Below are positions 3,870 to 48,188 of a stretch of DNA of 64,000 nucleotides, piece after piece. This DNA is from Terriglobia bacterium. Lineage in GTDB: Bacteria; Acidobacteriota; Terriglobia; JAIQFV01. Under the pieces are notes generated by a model. It had not been told where the DNA came from and did not search any database. It saw nothing but the letters and a program-made list of their open reading frames with translations. The first letter of the stretch is position 1; the number at the start of each line of letters is the position of its first letter. The DNA is taken from NCBI GenBank assembly GCA_028716525.1, contig JAQUPQ010000008.1:47448-111447 (forward strand). The letters are read 5' to 3'. The translations under genes were made by a program, and so were the position numbers.

Positions 3870-4073
3870 TTACTGTGCCGTAGCGCCCAGGCTCTGCTTC
3901 AACGCGGCAATCAGGTCGCCTGCCTGAAAGCCTTTTTGACGCGCCGTGTCCTCAATGGATTGACTCGCCCCGCAGCATACATCCACGTTGAATCGATAGA
4001 AGATCGGTAGGGAGTCCGGATGACTCCGAAGAATCTCATTGATGGTTGAGGACCCCGTAATTTCTTCCGCCAT
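3870..4073 (-). CDS. ScdA/RIC N-terminal-domain (DUF542-like) protein
   Basis: Small protein (67 residues) matching the stand-alone N-terminal domain of the RIC/ScdA/YtfE di-iron proteins that repair iron-sulfur clusters after nitric oxide damage. The domain signature is visible: INEILRSHPDSLPIFYRFNVD, then VCCGASQSIEDTA with the paired cysteines. The hemerythrin-like di-iron domain of full RIC is absent. Start chosen at ATG 4073 because GGGAG lies just upstream; a longer in-frame start at 4115 would overlap the cupin gene. It is the last gene of a leftward operon with the cupin and the NnrS-like protein, supporting an NO-response role by context. Confidence 0.8.
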   Translation of the reverse strand: MAEEITGSSTINEILRSHPDSLPIFYRFNVDVCCGASQSIEDTARQKGFQAGDLIAALKQSLGATAQ

Positions 4074-4102
4074 GGTTTGCTCCCTTTTCTCCCACTCCGC
4101 TT

Positions 4103-4441
4103 TCAGTGGGAACATGTGCCGGCGCCAGCCGGTGCCGGAATGATCGTAGCCAGAATATTGATCGATTCGTTCTCCGCAGCCCGCATGCCATGAATCTCCA
4201 GCGGCTCGAAAAACATCAAATCGTCTTTGCTGACGCTGTATTCTTCTTCTCCCTTGCGAATGAACCCGGCGCCGTCAACCACGTGCATAACGACGCAGGC
4301 ATTCGCCTTGTGAGGTTCCACCGCCTGACCCGCGTTGAGATTGAACAGCACCACACGACAAGGGGTGCAGTCGTGCAGCAATCGTGCCGTGTAGCCGTCG
4401 GGACGAAAGTCCTGTGCCGATTTCCAGTTTGTTTTGCTCAT
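4103..4441 (-). CDS. cupin-domain protein
   Basis: Single-domain cupin of 112 residues; cupins are small beta-barrels that bind a metal and act as enzymes or sensors. The two motifs can be seen: GQAVEPHKANACVVMHVVDG around residues 38-57 and a second motif ending in EPLEIHGMRA around residues 80-90. The C-terminus ends CSH after an Ala/Pro-rich stretch. Start chosen at ATG 4441 with AAGGAAGGAT upstream; an in-frame start at 4462 lies closer to the preceding stop. It lies between the NnrS-like gene (33 bp upstream) and the ScdA_N gene in a probable operon. The substrate is unknown. Confidence 0.75.
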   Translation of the reverse strand: MSKTNWKSAQDFRPDGYTARLLHDCTPCRVVLFNLNAGQAVEPHKANACVVMHVVDGAGFIRKGEEEYSVSKDDLMFFEPLEIHGMRAAENESINILATIIPAPAGAGTCSH

Positions 4442-4474
4442 TAGCGCATCCTTCCTTTCCAAAAATCTTTTCCC

Positions 4475-6292
4475 TCATGCCGCCGATTGGCTCGCCAACA
4501 TGTCGCGCACCTTGTTCAGTGTGCTCACCAACAAGCGGGCATCGAGATTCTTTATCCGGGCCGCTTGCTCGACCGTAACGGCATGAGCCATGGTTTTTCT
4601 CAAAACCGGATTCCGAAGTTGATCGAAACCAAAATTCAAGAACACATCCAGGGTGGCGGGGTAACTGGCCAATACCTGCGCCACGGTCCAGGAAGCACTA
4701 ATGGGGCCCGCCATTTTCTTTTCGACCGCCGCCCGTACATCCGCCCTGCCTTGAATCGTGGCCACCAGGTTGTACGCGAACAGGCACAGGCCGATTAATT
4801 CGAAATAGCCTGAGGTTCCCGCGACCAGGAACATCGATTTTCCAAACGGCACCGTCAGCGCTTGAAATGCGACGCGCAGCAAATTTCCTGCGGTCATGAA
4901 TACGAAAGCGGCATTCAGCAACCGGGTGCTGTAGATGCGATGTCCCGTGAAGACCGGCACGATGCGGTTGGAATAACCCATGATCATCATGGTGATGAAT
5001 CCCACGGTCAGGGCGTGCCGATAGGCCCCCATCAACGCATGGGCCACCACTTGCCCCGTCATGAATTGATAAATCGAAAAACTGAAAATCATGACGGTCG
5101 CAGCCGCCAGCCAGGCATAGGATTGATAAACAAATTTCTCGTAATCGCGCGGCAGCGGAGTGCCGCTGAGATCCACTGTTGATTTCCCAAAAATGTGGAG
5201 ATTGTAGATGAACCCGACAATGGCCAGAAGTTCCACGCTTGCCGAAGCCAGCAGCAAGCCCCGTGCCCAGGGAGTCGCCGCCTGGTGCATCATCAAATCG
5301 GCCGCCATGCGAGCCATCAAAGCCGCGTTCCATGAGCCAAACACCCAACGATCCAGGGTGTTATTGGGGGATTTCTTTCCCATGAACACGCCCACGGTCC
5401 TGCGGCCGATCCCGAAAATGAACATTGTGATGAATCCATCGAGCTGAAGGTGGCGCAACGACCAGTTCAAGGCCTCTGGAATGGAGTTGGAATTCTGCGC
5501 CGCCATCGTCATCACAATTCCGACATTGGCCAGTCCCATGAGAAGGAACCAGGTCGATCCGGCCATCAAGTATTTTTCGAAACCCTCGTTGGATTGGGGC
5601 GAGGACTGCAGTGTTTTGAGGATAATCAAAACGAATAGACCGATGGCCACCAACTCCAACAGCGCGGAGGTGATCACGATTCCCGCAATGTGAGTGTTCC
5701 CCGCCATCAGGGGTTGAAAAATTCCCCGCAGCAGCACCCCGGCAGCCATTAGAACAAACGACGTTTCCGCAAAAAATTCATTCCACAGTTTTGTGGCTTT
5801 CATCCGCGGAACCACGTGATAGGCCACGCCCATGATAAATAACGAAACCCAGCCGAAAATCTGCACGTGTCCGTGGGCTTGGTTGGAGGGATCCAGCCAC
5901 TTGGGAAAATCGCGGTGAATGGCAATGAGGGTGAGATTGATGACGCCCCACACCACGCCGCCGGTCAAGGTGAAGGCCAGGGCGGCAAAGATGAATCGTT
6001 TATACAGCGGTATTTCTTGAGGCCCTTGCGCTGAAGCTTCCTTTTGCAGCGGTTCAGTCCGGATGAACTCCTTGACTTCCGAAATCAAGGTTTGGGGATT
6101 GATGTTGTGAACCACGGCAAACCATTGCAGCGGCTCGTCGGGCCCGCGCTCTCCGCCGCAGCCCATAAGCCCGTAACGAGTGAACAGCTCCACGGTTTGA
6201 GGAAAGGCGGCAATAATGGCGCGAATGTTGGTGTTCGAGCCGATCGCATCCACCGTCAAAACTTCATTTTCTTTCGCGAGCGATGTGCTCAT
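4475..6292 (-). CDS. NnrS-like / haem-copper-oxidase-like membrane protein flanked by two DUF1858-type domains
   Basis: 605 residues in three parts. Residues about 12-75 resemble a DUF1858/ScdA_N-type helical domain (IRAIIAAFPQTVELFTRYGL, then MGCGGERGPDE). Residues about 95-520 contain roughly twelve hydrophobic segments. Three of these carry related histidine motifs: AHGHVQIFGW with YHVVPRM, SLRHLQLDGF with GIGRRTVGVF, and YRHALTVGF with YSNRIVPVFTG; they recall the haem-binding repeats of NnrS and cbb3-oxidase-like proteins. Residues about 530-600 form a second DUF1858-type domain (WTVAQVLASYPATLDVFLNFG). NnrS family members are haem and copper proteins linked to NO tolerance. The neighbours (ScdA_N protein, cupin, Crp/Fnr regulator) and an Fnr-like box at -41 fit that role. 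The exact chemistry is unknown. Confidence 0.75.
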   Translation of the reverse strand: MSTSLAKENEVLTVDAIGSNTNIRAIIAAFPQTVELFTRYGLMGCGGERGPDEPLQWFAVVHNINPQTLISEVKEFIRTEPLQKEASAQGPQEIPLYKRFIFAALAFTLTGGVVWGVINLTLIAIHRDFPKWLDPSNQAHGHVQIFGWVSLFIMGVAYHVVPRMKATKLWNEFFAETSFVLMAAGVLLRGIFQPLMAGNTHIAGIVITSALLELVAIGLFVLIILKTLQSSPQSNEGFEKYLMAGSTWFLLMGLANVGIVMTMAAQNSNSIPEALNWSLRHLQLDGFITMFIFGIGRRTVGVFMGKKSPNNTLDRWVFGSWNAALMARMAADLMMHQAATPWARGLLLASASVELLAIVGFIYNLHIFGKSTVDLSGTPLPRDYEKFVYQSYAWLAAATVMIFSFSIYQFMTGQVVAHALMGAYRHALTVGFITMMIMGYSNRIVPVFTGHRIYSTRLLNAAFVFMTAGNLLRVAFQALTVPFGKSMFLVAGTSGYFELIGLCLFAYNLVATIQGRADVRAAVEKKMAGPISASWTVAQVLASYPATLDVFLNFGFDQLRNPVLRKTMAHAVTVEQAARIKNLDARLLVSTLNKVRDMLASQSAA

Positions 6293-6328
6293 ATCCTTCT
6301 CCTGAGAAGATCCTCAATTCACAGGAAA

Positions 6329-6369
6329 AGGATATCCCTGGACCTTTTTGGGGGCCATGACTTATGTCA
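6329..6369 (-). promoter_or_regulatory. Fnr/Dnr-like operator and -10 of the NnrS-like operon
   Basis: Leftward promoter of the NnrS-like gene. The symmetric box TGAC-TTAT-GTCA lies at 6358-6369. Reading leftward, a -10-like TATCCT occupies 6334-6329, predicting a start near 6322. The box centre (6363.5) is then about 41.5 bp upstream, the classical class II position for Crp/Fnr activators. The same box type recurs before the YwiC-like gene. Confidence 0.65.
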
Positions 6370-6376
6370 CGAGAAG

Positions 6377-6449
6377 AAGTTGGGGACAGACACCTTCAGT
6401 CCAAGAATCCCTCGATTCTTTCAAAAACTGGTGTCTGTCCCCGGAGTGG
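6377..6449. repeat. 73-bp hairpin repeat, copy 1
   Basis: Arms GGGGACAGACACC (6382-6394) and GGTGTCTGTCCCC (6430-6442) form a perfect 13-bp inverted repeat. The same 73-bp unit recurs at 6664-6736 in the same orientation with only a few differences, all in the loop. The two copies bracket the RelE-like remnant. Confidence 0.9.
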
Positions 6450-6711
6450 CATCGCGCTCTCGGCGGTGGCCTATCCGAAGGATCACAACATCATGGCCCA
6501 AGAGCGCGAAGATGACTCGGTAGTCCCCCACCCGAAATTTCCTCAGCCCGGCAAACGGCCCTCTCAGAAGCGGATACTTCTCGGCGTTCTTTGACAATTC
6601 TGCTTCAATGCGATCCAGCACGCGACGGGCTTCGCCCCTGGACAGCTTCTTAAGGTCGCGGAAAAGTTGGGGACAGACACCTTCAGTCCAAGAATCCCTC
6701 GATTCTTTCAT
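6421..6711 (-). pseudogene. RelE/ParE-family toxin remnant between two hairpin repeats
   Basis: The open frame encodes 96 residues. Its centre (FRDLKKLSRGEARRVLDRIE, then LLRGPFAGLRKFRVGDYRVIF and ILRIGHRRE) is clearly RelE-like. These toxins are mRNA interferases that cleave transcripts on the ribosome. The first 16 codons and the last codons are translated from the two 73-bp repeat copies, replacing the usual short RelE N-terminal strand. No antitoxin gene is adjacent. I read it as a decayed toxin trimmed by repeat insertion; a functional variant cannot be excluded because the frame is intact. Confidence 0.65.
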
Positions 6712-6736
6712 AGATTGGTGTCTGTCCCCGGAGTGG
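6664..6736. repeat. 73-bp hairpin repeat, copy 2
   Basis: Second direct copy of the unit at 6377-6449, with the same GGGGACAGACACC / GGTGTCTGTCCCC arms. It covers the 5' end of the RelE-like frame. Confidence 0.9.
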
Positions 6737-6902
6737 TAGGTCGGAACTGAATCATCCCCCAGCTTCCGTTGGGGGAATTAGCGCCGCTCACCCTTTAGCG
6801 TCAATTTCTCTTCGGTTGATGCGTATGCGCAAGGCGGGATCCGAGCTACCAGAAATCAGCGCAATAGAAGTCGGTGGAAATGAGAGCAACGGCGTGATGA
6901 GC

Positions 6903-7595
6903 CTATTTCTTGAGCCCGGAGGCGATTTCTTTGAGTTCAGGGAGAGAATGAACGGTGATGTGTCGGCCGTCGGTGGAAATTAGTTTTTCATCCTGAAAAC
7001 GGCCGAGCGTGCGCGACACCAGTTCACGGACTGTACCCAACTGGGCGGCAATCTCCTGCTGAGAATACGCCAGTTCAAACTCGACCCCGGCGCCGGTTTT
7101 ACGACCTTTGCCTTCCGCCAACGTGACCAGCCGCCGAGCCAAGCGTTGACTGACTTCTTTCAATGATAATTCCTCCACCAACATGACCATTCTCCGCAAA
7201 CGCATGCTGAGGGAGCGGATGACCGCCATGGCGATTTCGGGATGTTGTCGCAGGGTGGCATCGAAATCGCGCCGTGAAATGAAGAGCAGCTCCGCCTCGT
7301 CGACGCATTGCGCGGCCGCCGGATACTTTCCTCCGTCAAACAGCGGCAGCTCCGCGACCGGCGTTCCCGGCAATTGCATGTCCAGGGATTGTTCGCGTCC
7401 GCTCGCAGAGCACTTCAAAATCCTCACGGCGCCCCGCACCACCACAAACAAACCTTTGCATTCGTCGCCCTCTGCAAACAGGAATTCGCCTTTGCCGTAG
7501 GTTTTCTCAACCGCGTGCTGAGCCAGCGCCGCAATTTCAGTCTCGCCCAGCTCGTGAAAGAAGGGAACGCGTTTTAAGAGTGCGGTTTTATCCAT
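6903..7595 (-). CDS. Crp/Fnr-family transcriptional regulator
   Basis: 230 residues. An N-terminal cyclic-nucleotide-binding-type beta-roll (residues about 10-120: VPFFHELGETEIAALA, GEFLFAEGD, GAVRIL) is followed by the dimer helix and a C-terminal winged helix with SQQEIAAQLGTVRELVSRTL. Recognition-helix residues Arg190, Glu191, Ser194 and Arg195 combine the Crp-type Arg-Glu with the Fnr-type Ser-Arg, consistent with reading TGAC half-sites. The N-terminal cysteine cluster of oxygen-sensing Fnr is absent, so a Dnr/HcpR-type sensor is more likely. Start chosen at ATG 7595 (AGGAAGGAGA upstream) rather than the in-frame 7622. It lies between the two promoters carrying TGAC-N4-GTCA boxes and is their likely regulator. 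Confidence 0.88.
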   Translation of the reverse strand: MDKTALLKRVPFFHELGETEIAALAQHAVEKTYGKGEFLFAEGDECKGLFVVVRGAVRILKCSASGREQSLDMQLPGTPVAELPLFDGGKYPAAAQCVDEAELLFISRRDFDATLRQHPEIAMAVIRSLSMRLRRMVMLVEELSLKEVSQRLARRLVTLAEGKGRKTGAGVEFELAYSQQEIAAQLGTVRELVSRTLGRFQDEKLISTDGRHITVHSLPELKEIASGLKK

Positions 7596-7618
7596 GGAAC
7601 TCTCCTTCCTGCACACCG

Positions 7619-7633
7619 ACAAATATGATTTGT
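7619..7633. promoter_or_regulatory. inverted repeat in the Crp/Fnr gene leader
   Basis: ACAAAT-ATG-ATTTGT forms a perfect 6-3-6 inverted repeat 24 bp upstream of the chosen ATG of the regulator. It differs from the TGAC-N4-GTCA boxes in sequence and spacing. A role as an operator is only a possibility. Confidence 0.35.
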
Positions 7634-7732
7634 GGAACCTTTTGTCTCGTTTAGTTTATCTAATTCAAGGGGGATGTTCAAAGGGCAGCTCTTGGCAATA
7701 TGGATGGGTCCTGGTCGAAATGCCTGAAGAAC

Positions 7733-7872
7733 TCACCGCGGAGACGCCGAGATGCGCAGAGGCCATAAAGGTCAGAGCACGAGAACGAGTTCATTCCAAA
7801 ATCTGGCGGAGACTTTTTAAGTAATTATTTCATTTCAGCGCAACCTCTGCGAACTTTGCGTCTCTGCGGTGA
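7733..7872. repeat. TIR-bounded element, TCACCGC(A/G)GAGACGC type, copy A
   Basis: Left end TCACCGCGGAGACGC at 7733-7747 and right end GCGTCTCTGCGGTGA near 7858-7872 form terminal inverted repeats of an approximately 140-bp non-coding element. A second member lies at 28598-28744 and partial ends occur near 15388 and 27260-27300. It sits directly upstream of the Fnr-like box of the YwiC-like gene. Confidence 0.75.
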
Positions 7873-7897
7873 GCATATCTTCACTCCTCCGAATTTG

Positions 7898-7937
7898 TGA
7901 CAAAAGTCATCTAGCCGCTGGTTGGAGGAATTATAAT
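7898..7937 (+). promoter_or_regulatory. Fnr/Dnr-like operator and -10 of the YwiC-like gene
   Basis: TGAC-AAAA-GTCA at 7898-7909 is followed by a perfect TATAAT at 7932-7937. The predicted start near 7944 puts the box centre (7903.5) at about -41, the class II activator position. This is the same architecture as upstream of the NnrS-like operon. Confidence 0.7.
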
Positions 7938-7993
7938 CGCACCGCATGAGTTCGTACTGAATGAACGTTTTTGAGGAATCCGAAGAACCCCTC

Positions 7994-8800
7994 ATGACAC
8001 TCAAGCACATGCTTCCGAAAGAGCACGGCACTTGGGCCATGCTGTTGGCGCCCTGGATAGTGGGTTGTGGAGTAGCCCGGCGTTTCGATCACGCCGCTCT
8101 GCTCTCGCTGGCGGCCATTCTGATGTTCTTTCTGGCGCAGAATCAGATGATGAACTGGATGCGGCTGCATTTTGCCAACCAACCGGATTCCAACGCTCTC
8201 CGGCGAACCGAGCTTTTGCTGCTGGTGTTTGGCTTGATCGGAATTCTGATTGTTTCGCCCCTGTGGGTGGTCGACAAACTGCACGGGCTGATTTATTTCG
8301 CGCTCCTGGCGTTGCTTCTGACCGCCGCTGCCCTCTTCCTGGTTCAAAAAAAGAAGGACCGCTCGATCGCCGGGCAGATTCTGGCGGCCGCCGGGCTGTC
8401 GTTGAGCGCGCCGTTGGCTTACTACTCCACTTCACGCACTCTTGACCACAACGCGGGGATTCTGTGGCTGGTGAATTTCCTCTTCTTTTTGGGCGGGGTG
8501 TTTTACGTTCAGATGAAGATTGATGCCCTGGCACGAAGAAAATCCTTCCAACGCTTGTCCGACAGGTTCCGATTTGCCGCTGGGACGTTGGTGATGGACT
8601 CACTTCTTGTTCTGGTGGCCTTCGGATCCCTGCGATGGAGCTCTTTCTCCGGCTGGGCCACTTTGGCATTCGCGCCCACAGCCATTCAGGCGATCGCCGG
8701 AACAATCCGTCTCGACCACCCCGCTGTTTTGAAACGTGTCGGAATCATCTCCACGATTCATTCCATCCTTTTTGTCGCCCTTTTCATCATCTTGGCTTGA
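7994..8800 (+). CDS. YwiC-like integral membrane protein
   Basis: Hydrophobic protein with about seven to eight membrane segments and the YwiC-family opening MLPKEHGTWAMLLAPW. Residues after the first helix include NQMMNWMRLHF and an LDHNAGILWLVNF stretch. The molecular function of the family is not known to me; in Bacillus subtilis ywiC lies beside fnr and narK, so association with anaerobic or nitrate/nitrite metabolism is established by context only. Here the promoter has a TATAAT with an Fnr-like box at -41, which fits that association. Starts at 7961, 7994 and 8009 are all in frame; 7994 is a compromise and 8009 would match the family N-terminus most closely. Confidence 0.75.
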   Translation: MTLKHMLPKEHGTWAMLLAPWIVGCGVARRFDHAALLSLAAILMFFLAQNQMMNWMRLHFANQPDSNALRRTELLLLVFGLIGILIVSPLWVVDKLHGLIYFALLALLLTAAALFLVQKKKDRSIAGQILAAAGLSLSAPLAYYSTSRTLDHNAGILWLVNFLFFLGGVFYVQMKIDALARRKSFQRLSDRFRFAAGTLVMDSLLVLVAFGSLRWSSFSGWATLAFAPTAIQAIAGTIRLDHPAVLKRVGIISTIHSILFVALFIILA

Positions 8801-15015: not shown

Positions 15016-15135
15016 CCGATCCATCGGGGCATGAAGAACTGCTCCGAAAATAGTCCCGGAGGGACGGCGTTCAGTAGCCCGGGGCGTGAGCCCCGGGAAA
15101 GGGCGCGTTTTAACAACGGAGCCCCAAAGGGGCGA
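15016..15135 (+). repeat. 120-bp GC-rich module, copy A
   Basis: Matches 32754-32873 in the same orientation over 120 bp with few differences. It includes GTCCCGGAGGGAC and GAGCCCC-AAA-GGGGCG hairpins; related words also occur in the 184-bp tandem repeat at 47.8-48.2 kb. Confidence 0.85.
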
Positions 15136-32753: not shown

Positions 32754-32873
32754 CCGATGAATCGGGGCAGGAGGAACCGCTCCGAAAATAGTCCCGGAGG
32801 GACGGCGTTCAGTAGCCCGGGGTGTGAGCCCCGGGAAAGGGCGCGTTTTAACGACGGAGCCCCGAAGGGGCGA
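32754..32873 (+). repeat. 120-bp GC-rich module, copy B
   Basis: Matches 15016-15135 over the full 120 bp with few differences. It ends in GGGGCGACAG, which is shared with the next module. Confidence 0.85.
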
Positions 32874-40809: not shown

Positions 40810-40860
40810 AAAAACAATAAAGCCGACCCCGTGTCAAAACGGAAGTCGGCTCGGCGACTT
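40810..40860 (-). terminator. riboswitch expression platform: terminator versus antiterminator upstream of moaA
   Basis: On the minus strand AGCCGAC (40851-40845) pairs with GTCGGCT (40827-40821), reinforced by CCGT/ACGG inside, followed by TTATTGTTTTT just before the ATG. The same AGCCGAC segment overlaps an alternative hairpin AAGTCG/CGACTT (40860-40841 region). The two structures exclude each other. Confidence 0.65.
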
Positions 40861-40985
40861 GCGTCTTTCTCCTTTCCAAGCACGGGAGGCATTCCAATTT
40901 CTCGGAACACCCTGATCCCGCTGAGCGGGCGTCGGTGCGGAACTCATGTCCTGTCAGGATTTAGAATCCTGCACTCGGAGAAAAT
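40861..40985 (-). ncRNA. probable molybdenum-cofactor riboswitch (Moco motif)
   Basis: The minus-strand leader of moaA contains CTCCGAGTGCAGGATTC, an internal GGATT/AATCC hairpin, a CGCCCGCTCAGCGGG hairpin, and near the 3' side TGCCTCCCGTGC followed by TTGGAAAGGAGA, which pairs CTCC with GGAG. Position before moaA and the CCTCCCG...GGAAAGGAG core fit what I remember of the Moco RNA motif. I cannot align it to a covariance model here. Confidence 0.55.
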
Positions 40986-41088
40986 AATCCCGGAATTTCA
41001 AAAATCCATGGTTTCAATCCAGATGCTAACGAAGGCAACGCCGTTTGTCAAACCAAAGGAGCCGCGGCCTAAAATGGGCCAATGCCCT

Positions 41089-47782: not shown

Positions 47783-48188
47783 CGCACCACAACGACAGAG
47801 CCCCAACGGGGCGAAATAATGTTTAGAAAACTCTTTCACGGTTTGGAGATGATTGGTTTTCGGAAACCACGGTCATTGGTTCAGTGGTAAGACGGAAAAA
47901 TCCGCTGCACAACCAGTCCCGAAGGGACGGAGTTTAGTAGCCCGGGGCGTCAGCTCCGGGTCGCAACGCACCACAACGACAGAGCCCCAACGGGGCGAAA
48001 TAATGTTTAGAAAACTCTTTCACGGTTTGGAGATGATTGGTTTTCGGAAACCACGGTCATTGGTTCAGTGGTAAGGCGGAAAAATCCGCTGCACAACCAG
48101 TCCCGAAGGGACGGAGTTTAGTAGCCCGGGGCGTCAGCTCCGGGTCGCAACGCACCACAACGACAGAGCCCCAACGAGGCGAAACTCT
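47781..48188 (+). repeat. tandem repeat, 184-bp unit (two full copies plus a partial third)
   Basis: The word AACGCACCACAACGACAGAG begins at 47781, 47965 and 48149, giving an exact period of 184 bp. I see one mismatch between copies 1 and 2. The third copy breaks off after about 40 bp. Units contain GAGCCCC-AA-CGGGGC and AGTCCCGAAGGGAC hairpins related to the 120-bp modules elsewhere. Confidence 0.95.

What the first reader, a model, noticed from the sequence alone, without database searches (positions are those of the whole stretch)
6301..7945. Two promoters with the same TGAC-N4-GTCA box at -41 around a Crp/Fnr gene
The NnrS-like operon has TGACTTATGTCA at 6358-6369 ahead of a TATCCT -10; the YwiC-like gene has TGACAAAAGTCA at 7898-7909 ahead of a TATAAT. 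In both, the box centre falls about 41 bp before the predicted start, the class II position of Crp/Fnr activators. The regulator between them has Arg190-Glu191 and Ser194-Arg195 in its recognition helix and no Fnr-type cysteine cluster. Together this suggests a local Dnr/HcpR-like regulon for nitric oxide or low oxygen that includes a YwiC protein of unknown function.
Basis: partly seen in the sequence, partly recalled or inferred. Interest (0 to 1): 0.72.

Follow-up and report, generated by a model that had tools for sequence, protein, structure and literature searches.

The report
Acidobacterial nitric-oxide regulon with YwiC
In an acidobacterium, the two promoters flanking a Crp/Fnr-type regulator gene carry the same binding box at nearly the same distance from the -10 element, and this layout recurs in front of nitric-oxide-defence genes in related bacteria, so the regulator likely switches on a nitric-oxide defence programme that is predicted to include YwiC, a membrane protein of unknown function.

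Summary
TGACTTATGTCA (6358-6369) and TGACAAAAGTCA (7898-7909) lie 23 and 22 nt before TATCCT and TATAAT, centring them at -41.5 and -40.5. Two boxes per window is not rare (12 of 100 shuffles); comparison makes them real. In 80 named acidobacterial loci around regulator orthologues, TGAC-N4-GTCA plus TAnnnT at 21-24 nt was first of 2,816 palindrome/spacer combinations (54 sites; next independent 3). Of 85 TAnnnT hits 15-31 nt downstream, 66 are at 23 nt; all 56 gene-assigned sites have an outer G. The operator is GTGAC-N4-GTCA(T/C). Boxed genes include RIC, hemerythrin, NnrS, qNOR and YwiC. In the window's genome it also precedes a hemerythrin and an Mrp/ApbC gene. The regulator keeps R190, S194, R195 and lacks an Fnr-type cysteine cluster. 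It likely is an NO-responsive class II activator whose regulon includes YwiC; NO sensing is inferred. Not every target is conserved: 16 of 23 YwiC loci lack the box, and genome-wide enrichment is modest. YwiC's confident model resembles the UbiA-type fold, with weak Foldseek support. A new variant of a known kind: a DNR/HcpR-like regulon with a hybrid operator.

The parts
6357..6370 (-). Operator 1, GTGACATAAGTCAT (core box 6358-6369), for the NnrS operon
   Evidence: exact box with TAnnnT before 11 of 30 NnrS-like loci, this one included
6329..6334 (-). -10 element TATCCT, 23 nt after the box; predicted start near 6322
   Evidence: sequence; 66 of 85 TAnnnT hits 15-31 nt after boxes in the 80 named loci are at 23 nt
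4475..6292 (-). NnrS-like membrane protein with ScdA_N-like N-terminus and DUF1858 C-terminus (605 aa)
   Evidence: PF05940, PF08984, PF00115 over cut-off, PF04405 under it
4103..4462 (-). cupin protein, second gene of the operon; overlaps the next gene by 13 nt
   Evidence: PF07883/PF02311; cf. NsrT of Thermus
3870..4115 (-). short ScdA_N (RIC N-terminal) protein with a CCG motif, third gene of the operon
   Evidence: PF04405 31.3 bits, just under the 32.5 cut-off; cf. NsrS of Thermus
6903..7595 (-). Crp/Fnr-family regulator (ATG start; TTG at 7622 possible)
   Evidence: model pLDDT 89.4
7897..7910 (+). Operator 2, GTGACAAAAGTCAT (core box 7898-7909), for ywiC
   Evidence: exact box plus TAnnnT before 6 of 23 YwiC loci, this one included
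7932..7937 (+). -10 element TATAAT, 22 nt after the box; predicted start near 7944
   Evidence: sequence
7961..8800 (+). YwiC-like membrane protein, 279 aa; homologues suggest the start may be at 7994
   Evidence: PF14256 67.4 bits; alignment A2; model pLDDT 94.0

Best explanation
The two boxes are copies of one conserved operator, GTGAC-N4-GTCA(T/C) set 22-23 nt before a -10 element, through which the Crp/Fnr protein encoded between them likely acts as a class II activator of a nitric-oxide-defence regulon predicted to include YwiC. Shown by sequence: the boxes, their spacing, the conservation of box plus spacing near regulator orthologues and before NO-related genes, and the invariant recognition-helix residues. 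Inferred: that this regulator rather than a paralogue binds, that binding activates, and that NO (perhaps through a bound haem, as described for DNR and HcpR; PMC12750200, passages) is the signal. When NO rises, the dimer would bind the box centred at -41.5 or -40.5, contact RNA polymerase, and raise the NnrS/cupin/ScdA_N operon, ywiC, a hemerythrin gene and possibly an Mrp/ApbC Fe-S carrier gene. The products would bind or remove NO and repair iron centres.
For: Motif rank: TGAC-N4-GTCA with TAnnnT at 21-24 nt is first of 2,816 palindrome/spacer combinations upstream of 985 called genes in 80 named loci (54 of 107 boxes; the next two overlap the same sites; next independent 3). TAnnnT at 23 nt in 66 of 85 hits, outer G in 56 of 56 gene-assigned sites. 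Downstream genes of those 56, by similarity cluster with one representative each scanned for most: RIC 33, polyferredoxin (NapH/NosR-like, under cut-off) 4, hemerythrin-DUF438 3, methyltransferase 3, NnrS 2, qNOR 2, AhbD-like radical SAM (under cut-off) 2, multihaem cytochrome 2, YwiC 1, NirK-like (just under cut-off) 1, others 3. Exact box upstream, own gene included: NnrS 11 of 30 loci (11 with TAnnnT at 22-24), hemerythrin 15 of 30 (4 with TAnnnT, 10 more with CAnnnT), qNOR 4 of 30 (2 with TAnnnT, 1 CAnnnT), against 0 of 24 multicopper-oxidase control genes; YwiC 6 of 23 with TAnnnT. Hemerythrin box kept in the three genomes of the family, one with one mismatch. Regulator orthologue present in 20 of 23 genomes with YwiC (Fisher p 7e-6), 30 of 32 with NnrS (7e-12), 21 of 27 with qNOR (1e-4), 23 of 34 with the hemerythrin (0.003), none corrected for kinship. 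Genomes with the regulator: 343 sites versus 128 control; without: 285 versus 212. R190, S194, R195 invariant in 24 and 25 aligned sequences, as the published R180-G3 and E181-A6 correlation asks for GTGA.
Against: The 80 named loci are the best of 461 found with the regulator and include many related genomes, so counts are not independent. The genome-level association is modest and not corrected for kinship; family f3 (11 genomes) has no orthologue but 6.3 sites against 2.9 control on average, and G053 (24 sites) and G043 (17) lack a close orthologue. Two paralogues in the own genome have a similar R-E-x-x-T-R reading head and could read similar sites. Of 23 YwiC loci, 16 show no box upstream even with two mismatches and a TAnnnT, among them the family relative G002. 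Four of 20 fetched relatives' stretches show no box before a regulon-type gene. NirK genes over the curated cut-off had 0 of 5, and the Mrp box is not kept in the two family relatives (1 of 3). The intergenic box near bioY is unassigned. The own genome has no qNOR or NirK match. No binding, transcription start or ligand was measured.
Confidence: 0.78

Rival explanations
1. Same operator and class II activation, but the signal is low oxygen or a general redox or nitrogen-oxide cue (Fnr-like role) rather than NO.
For: Box-driven genes also include a NapH/NosR-like polyferredoxin, multihaem cytochromes and a radical SAM haem-synthase-like gene. The 38%-identical Thermus plasmid regulator, presumably DnrT by its place, sits by a nitrate reductase operon, and the Thermus dnrST product is called an oxygen-responsive system (start of the abstract of PMC6282519, seen in the listing).
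Against: No Fnr-type cysteine cluster; the commonest boxed genes are RIC, NnrS and hemerythrin, which are NO-linked families.
Confidence: 0.17
2. Another Crp/Fnr paralogue of the cell reads these boxes, and the gene between the promoters is a bystander.
For: Two own-genome paralogues (L033, L036) carry SRETVTR reading heads; some genomes without a close orthologue still have many sites.
Against: The box sits beside the orthologue in several families, most often before the RIC gene next to it; genus g22 has 17 sites in one regulator-bearing genome and 0-4 in seven without it, though the other bearer has only 2.
Confidence: 0.12
3. Chance palindromes: the two boxes are coincidental and have no function.
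For: Two or more boxes occur in 12 of 100 shuffles of the window.
Against: Preferred spacing, invariant outer G, first of 2,816 combinations, 0 of 24 controls.
Confidence: 0.03

Closest known systems
HcpR regulon of delta-proteobacteria (PMC1274295, passages read)
   Same: Crp/Fnr protein next to targets; operator core TGAC-N4-GTCA (wyTTGACnnnnGTCAArw) or wTGTGAnnnnnnTCACAw; nitrogen-oxide genes.
   Different: Here the outer base is G with C inside (GTGAC), a hybrid of the two motifs; the commonest boxed genes are RIC, NnrS and hemerythrin. hcp was not searched for.
DNR of Pseudomonas (NO-responsive activator; passages)
   Same: Crp/Fnr family, NO genes; DNR structure 3dkw is a sequence match at 5.7e-21.
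   Different: DNR motif is similar to TTGATN4ATCAA; haem binding untested here.
Thermus DnrT and the nic/nar clusters (PMC5748679: passages, section 22)
   Same: A 38%-identical Crp/Fnr regulator beside nar genes and a hemerythrin gene; short ScdA_N plus cupin pair (NsrS/NsrT) like the window's last two operon genes.
   Different: NsrR acts on the Thermus nic promoters; NsrT and NsrS orthology was not shown (no Thermus plasmid hit for the cupin at 1e-5).
Bacillus subtilis fnr-ywiC-nar region (recalled, no call)
   Same: A YwiC gene beside a Crp/Fnr regulator gene.
   Different: Bacillus Fnr carries an Fe-S cluster (recalled); not checked here.

Membership tests
Class II Crp/Fnr-activated promoter | Two-fold box centred near -41.5 and a -10 element | tested here: met
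   22 and 23 nt to the -10 in the window; 66 of 85 TAnnnT hits at 23 nt in relatives; by sequence only, transcription starts not mapped
Crp/Fnr superfamily | cNMP-binding-like domain plus HTH_Crp | tested here: met
   PF00027, PF13545, PF00325 over cut-off
CRP (cAMP receptor) | Above the curated CRP model score; phosphate-contacting Arg and Ser/Thr in the cAMP site | tested here: not met
   80.9 bits against cut-off 266; the stretch aligned to MtbCRP PRTS reads KYPA, with P92 and A93 invariant; role of the Arg recalled
FNR | N-terminal cysteine cluster for [4Fe-4S]; model score | tested here: not met
   first cysteine is C46; 73.1 bits against cut-off 228
HcpR | Operator TTGACN4GTCAA or TGTGAN6TCACA | tested here: inconclusive
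   core TGACN4GTCA met; outer T of TTGAC not met (G in 56 of 56); TGTGA fits the sites with T at -2 (21 of 56)
HcpR | hcp in the regulon | not tested
   no search for hcp was made
DNR/HcpR haem NO sensors | Haem binding and NO response | not testable with these tools
   needs protein; no fully invariant His in orthologues, H118 is 90% or more in one alignment; C46 invariant
YwiC-like (PF14256) | Score above the Pfam cut-off | tested here: met
   67.4 bits against 25
UbiA prenyltransferase superfamily | UbiA-type helical fold | tested here: inconclusive
UbiA prenyltransferase superfamily | Two conserved Asp-rich metal-binding motifs (recalled) | tested here: not met
   no Asp conserved in 85% or more of 30 aligned YwiC sequences; conserved polar residues include E21, H22, Y182, K186, R202, H267
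NnrS | Score above the Pfam cut-off | tested here: met
   41.2 bits against 28

The most novel reading that the evidence does not exclude
YwiC is a core, NO-induced effector of this regulon: a UbiA-like membrane fold that has lost the metal-binding aspartates and uses its conserved EHG, YxxxK and His residues to bind or modify haem or quinone, protecting the respiratory chain from NO, with a Crp/Fnr-YwiC partnership that predates the split of acidobacteria and Bacillus.
Probability: 0.27. Interest if true: 0.72.

Novelty: new variant of a known kind. Interest (0 to 1): 0.52.

Why it matters
Acidobacteria are abundant in soil (general knowledge). In the open library I searched I saw no description of an NO regulator for them (term searches, listings only, none of those papers opened; most subscription papers are not held). 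This gives a testable operator with a preferred geometry, a candidate regulator, and a target list that suggests a physiological role for a protein family of unknown function (YwiC). The outer G fits a published two-residue recognition correlation, so it also extends that code to a hybrid CRP/HcpR site.

Tried and rejected
Box count in the window as proof: rejected, because 12 of 100 shuffles give 2 or more. Box enrichment in whole genomes as proof by itself: only modest and confounded by kinship. NirK as a conserved target: 0 of 5 NirK genes over the cut-off have the box; the one boxed NirK-like gene (L262) scores 295.2 against a cut-off of 296.3. Mrp/ApbC as a conserved target: box in 1 of 3 family genomes. 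YwiC on plasmids as an outside check: no match. NnrS on plasmids: no match. Literature on YwiC: searches showed nothing on its function in their listings; one search lists 19 papers, by title mostly materials science; two microbiological ones (PMC10050317, PMC7727763) were not opened. A solved relative of YwiC by sequence: none up to E 1. Regulator fold search: Thermus CAP (4ev0), GlxR, MtbCRP, DNR, FNR, CooA and HcpR all match, so the fold does not tell the signal.

Dropped before counts or counted loosely: one search used the 23 YwiC loci. One search used the 30 loci fetched per family, own gene included, some partial or from one genome, and accepted CAnnnT and AAnnnT as -10; 24 of 25 control loci gave an ORF. 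In one search, sites without TAnnnT at 21-24 nt or without a gene on their strand within 350 nt are not among the 56. The regulator orthologue set of 46 genomes uses E below 1e-35. Only 50 of the 86 own-genome boxes were listed; beyond the AT-spacer ones, I scanned for a -10 only those inside own-genome stretches I held, which gave a few more box-plus-[ATC]AnnnT pairs that I did not assign to genes.

Full report
OBSERVATION. The minus-strand NnrS site is GTGACATAAGTCAT with TATCCT 23 nt after the GTCA; the YwiC site is GTGACAAAAGTCAT with TATAAT 22 nt after the GTCA. Two boxes in 64 kb is unremarkable by itself (mean 0.66, 12 of 100 shuffles with 2 or more).

OWN GENOME. The window is G000:C8:47448-111447 in a 4.2 Mb genome of 104 contigs. 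TGACWWWWGTCA occurs 8 times against 2 for the reversed control. Three of the eight are inside genes. Five are intergenic: the two here, one 153 nt before a hemerythrin gene (C42; TAATCT at 23 nt), one 119 nt before an Mrp/ApbC-like gene (C53; TAATCT at 23 nt), and one near a bioY-like gene without a clear target (C25). With 90% of the held own sequence in ORFs, 5 of 8 intergenic has p about 4e-4. TAnnnT at 22-23 nt follows 1.6% of intergenic positions, so 4 of 5 facing a gene is p about 3e-7. These tests were made after seeing the sites.

RELATIVES. The organism is an acidobacterium of class Terriglobia by its kin: a close YwiC relative (P0012) is named Acidobacteriia/Terriglob...; the 80 named regulator loci are all acidobacterial; and a same-class genome, G085, has a contig of the same length (206012) as the Terriglobia record behind L226. 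A close regulator orthologue (E below 1e-35) is in 46 of 101 genomes searched. I took one stretch around the regulator, ywiC or NnrS gene from each of 20 of these genomes. In 16 of the 20 the box precedes a RIC, hemerythrin, NnrS or YwiC gene; TAnnnT follows at 22-24 nt in 10 of them, CAnnnT or a weaker or no hexamer in the rest (read from its output). In the same family, G001 carries the box between ywiC and the regulator, facing ywiC, and before its hemerythrin gene; G002 carries it, with one mismatch, before its hemerythrin gene and, exact, beside its regulator at a contig end, but not before the ywiC gene found.

MOTIF TEST. I counted every palindrome of the form X-Nk-X' (256 half-sites, spacers 0-10) upstream of 985 called genes in the 80 named loci, with TAnnnT at 21-24 nt. 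TGAC-N4-GTCA came first with 54 of its 107 sites; the next two are shifted views of the same sites, and the next independent one had 3. Of 85 TAnnnT hits 15-31 nt after a box, 66 are at 23 nt, and the base before TGAC is G in 56 of 56 gene-assigned sites. The loci are the best 80 of 461, selected around the regulator and related to each other, so this shows a real operator, not its genome-wide frequency.

TARGETS. The 56 gene-assigned sites precede RIC in 33 cases (one representative, L222, is over the curated RIC cut-off), then polyferredoxin (NapH/NosR-like), hemerythrin-DUF438, methyltransferase, NnrS, qNOR, AhbD-like radical SAM, multihaem cytochrome, YwiC and NirK-like genes and three others (single representatives were scanned, and the NapH, AhbD and NirK models are under their cut-offs). 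Family by family, own gene included, an exact box precedes 11 of 30 NnrS, 15 of 30 hemerythrin, 4 of 30 qNOR, 1 of 3 Mrp and 0 of 5 NirK loci, against 0 of 24 multicopper-oxidase controls. A strict TAnnnT at 22-24 nt follows in 11, 4, 2 and 1 of these; most hemerythrin sites have CAnnnT instead (printout). YwiC: exact box with TAnnnT in 6 of 23 loci.

REGULATOR. R190, S194 and R195 are invariant and E191 is E or D in orthologues. Published analysis correlates R180 with G3 and E181 with A6 of the operator (PMC1274295, passages), which predicts GTGA half-sites, as found. The protein is neither CRP nor FNR by curated cut-offs. The residues aligned with the PRTS stretch of MtbCRP are KYPA. C46 is invariant; C115, near-invariant in others, is Leu in the window. 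What it senses is not decided by sequence; NO is inferred from the target list.

LIMITS. All evidence is sequence or model based. Some genomes without a close orthologue have many sites, and two own paralogues have similar reading heads. The annotation of most neighbours rests on ORF calls by length and similarity, not on curated gene models.

Noticed in passing
6370-6449 and 6657-6736: Two 80-nt direct repeats, 93% identical, each with the complementary ends GGGGACAGACACC and GGTGTCTGTCCCC, around a ParE-like ORF (6421-6711, PF05016); the first abuts operator 1. They look like REP-type elements (recalled).
   Followed up: partly
4103-4462 and 3870-4115: Cupin plus short ScdA_N gene pair, overlapping by 13 nt, resembling the NsrT/NsrS pair described in Thermus.
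   Followed up: partly
40853-40992: Molybdenum/tungsten cofactor riboswitch (RF01055, 75.3 bits).
   Followed up: no
15052-15097, 32790-32835, 47915-47960, 48099-48144: Four Acido-Lenti-1 RNAs (RF01687).
   Followed up: no
L026:8133-8144 (G000:C25:21632): Fifth intergenic AT-spacer box of the genome, next to a bioY-like gene, without a clear target promoter.
   Followed up: partly
L180:2602 and L187:2572: In G001 and G002 the box precedes a GltD-like oxidoreductase gene close to its called start; a possible further target in that genus.
   Followed up: no
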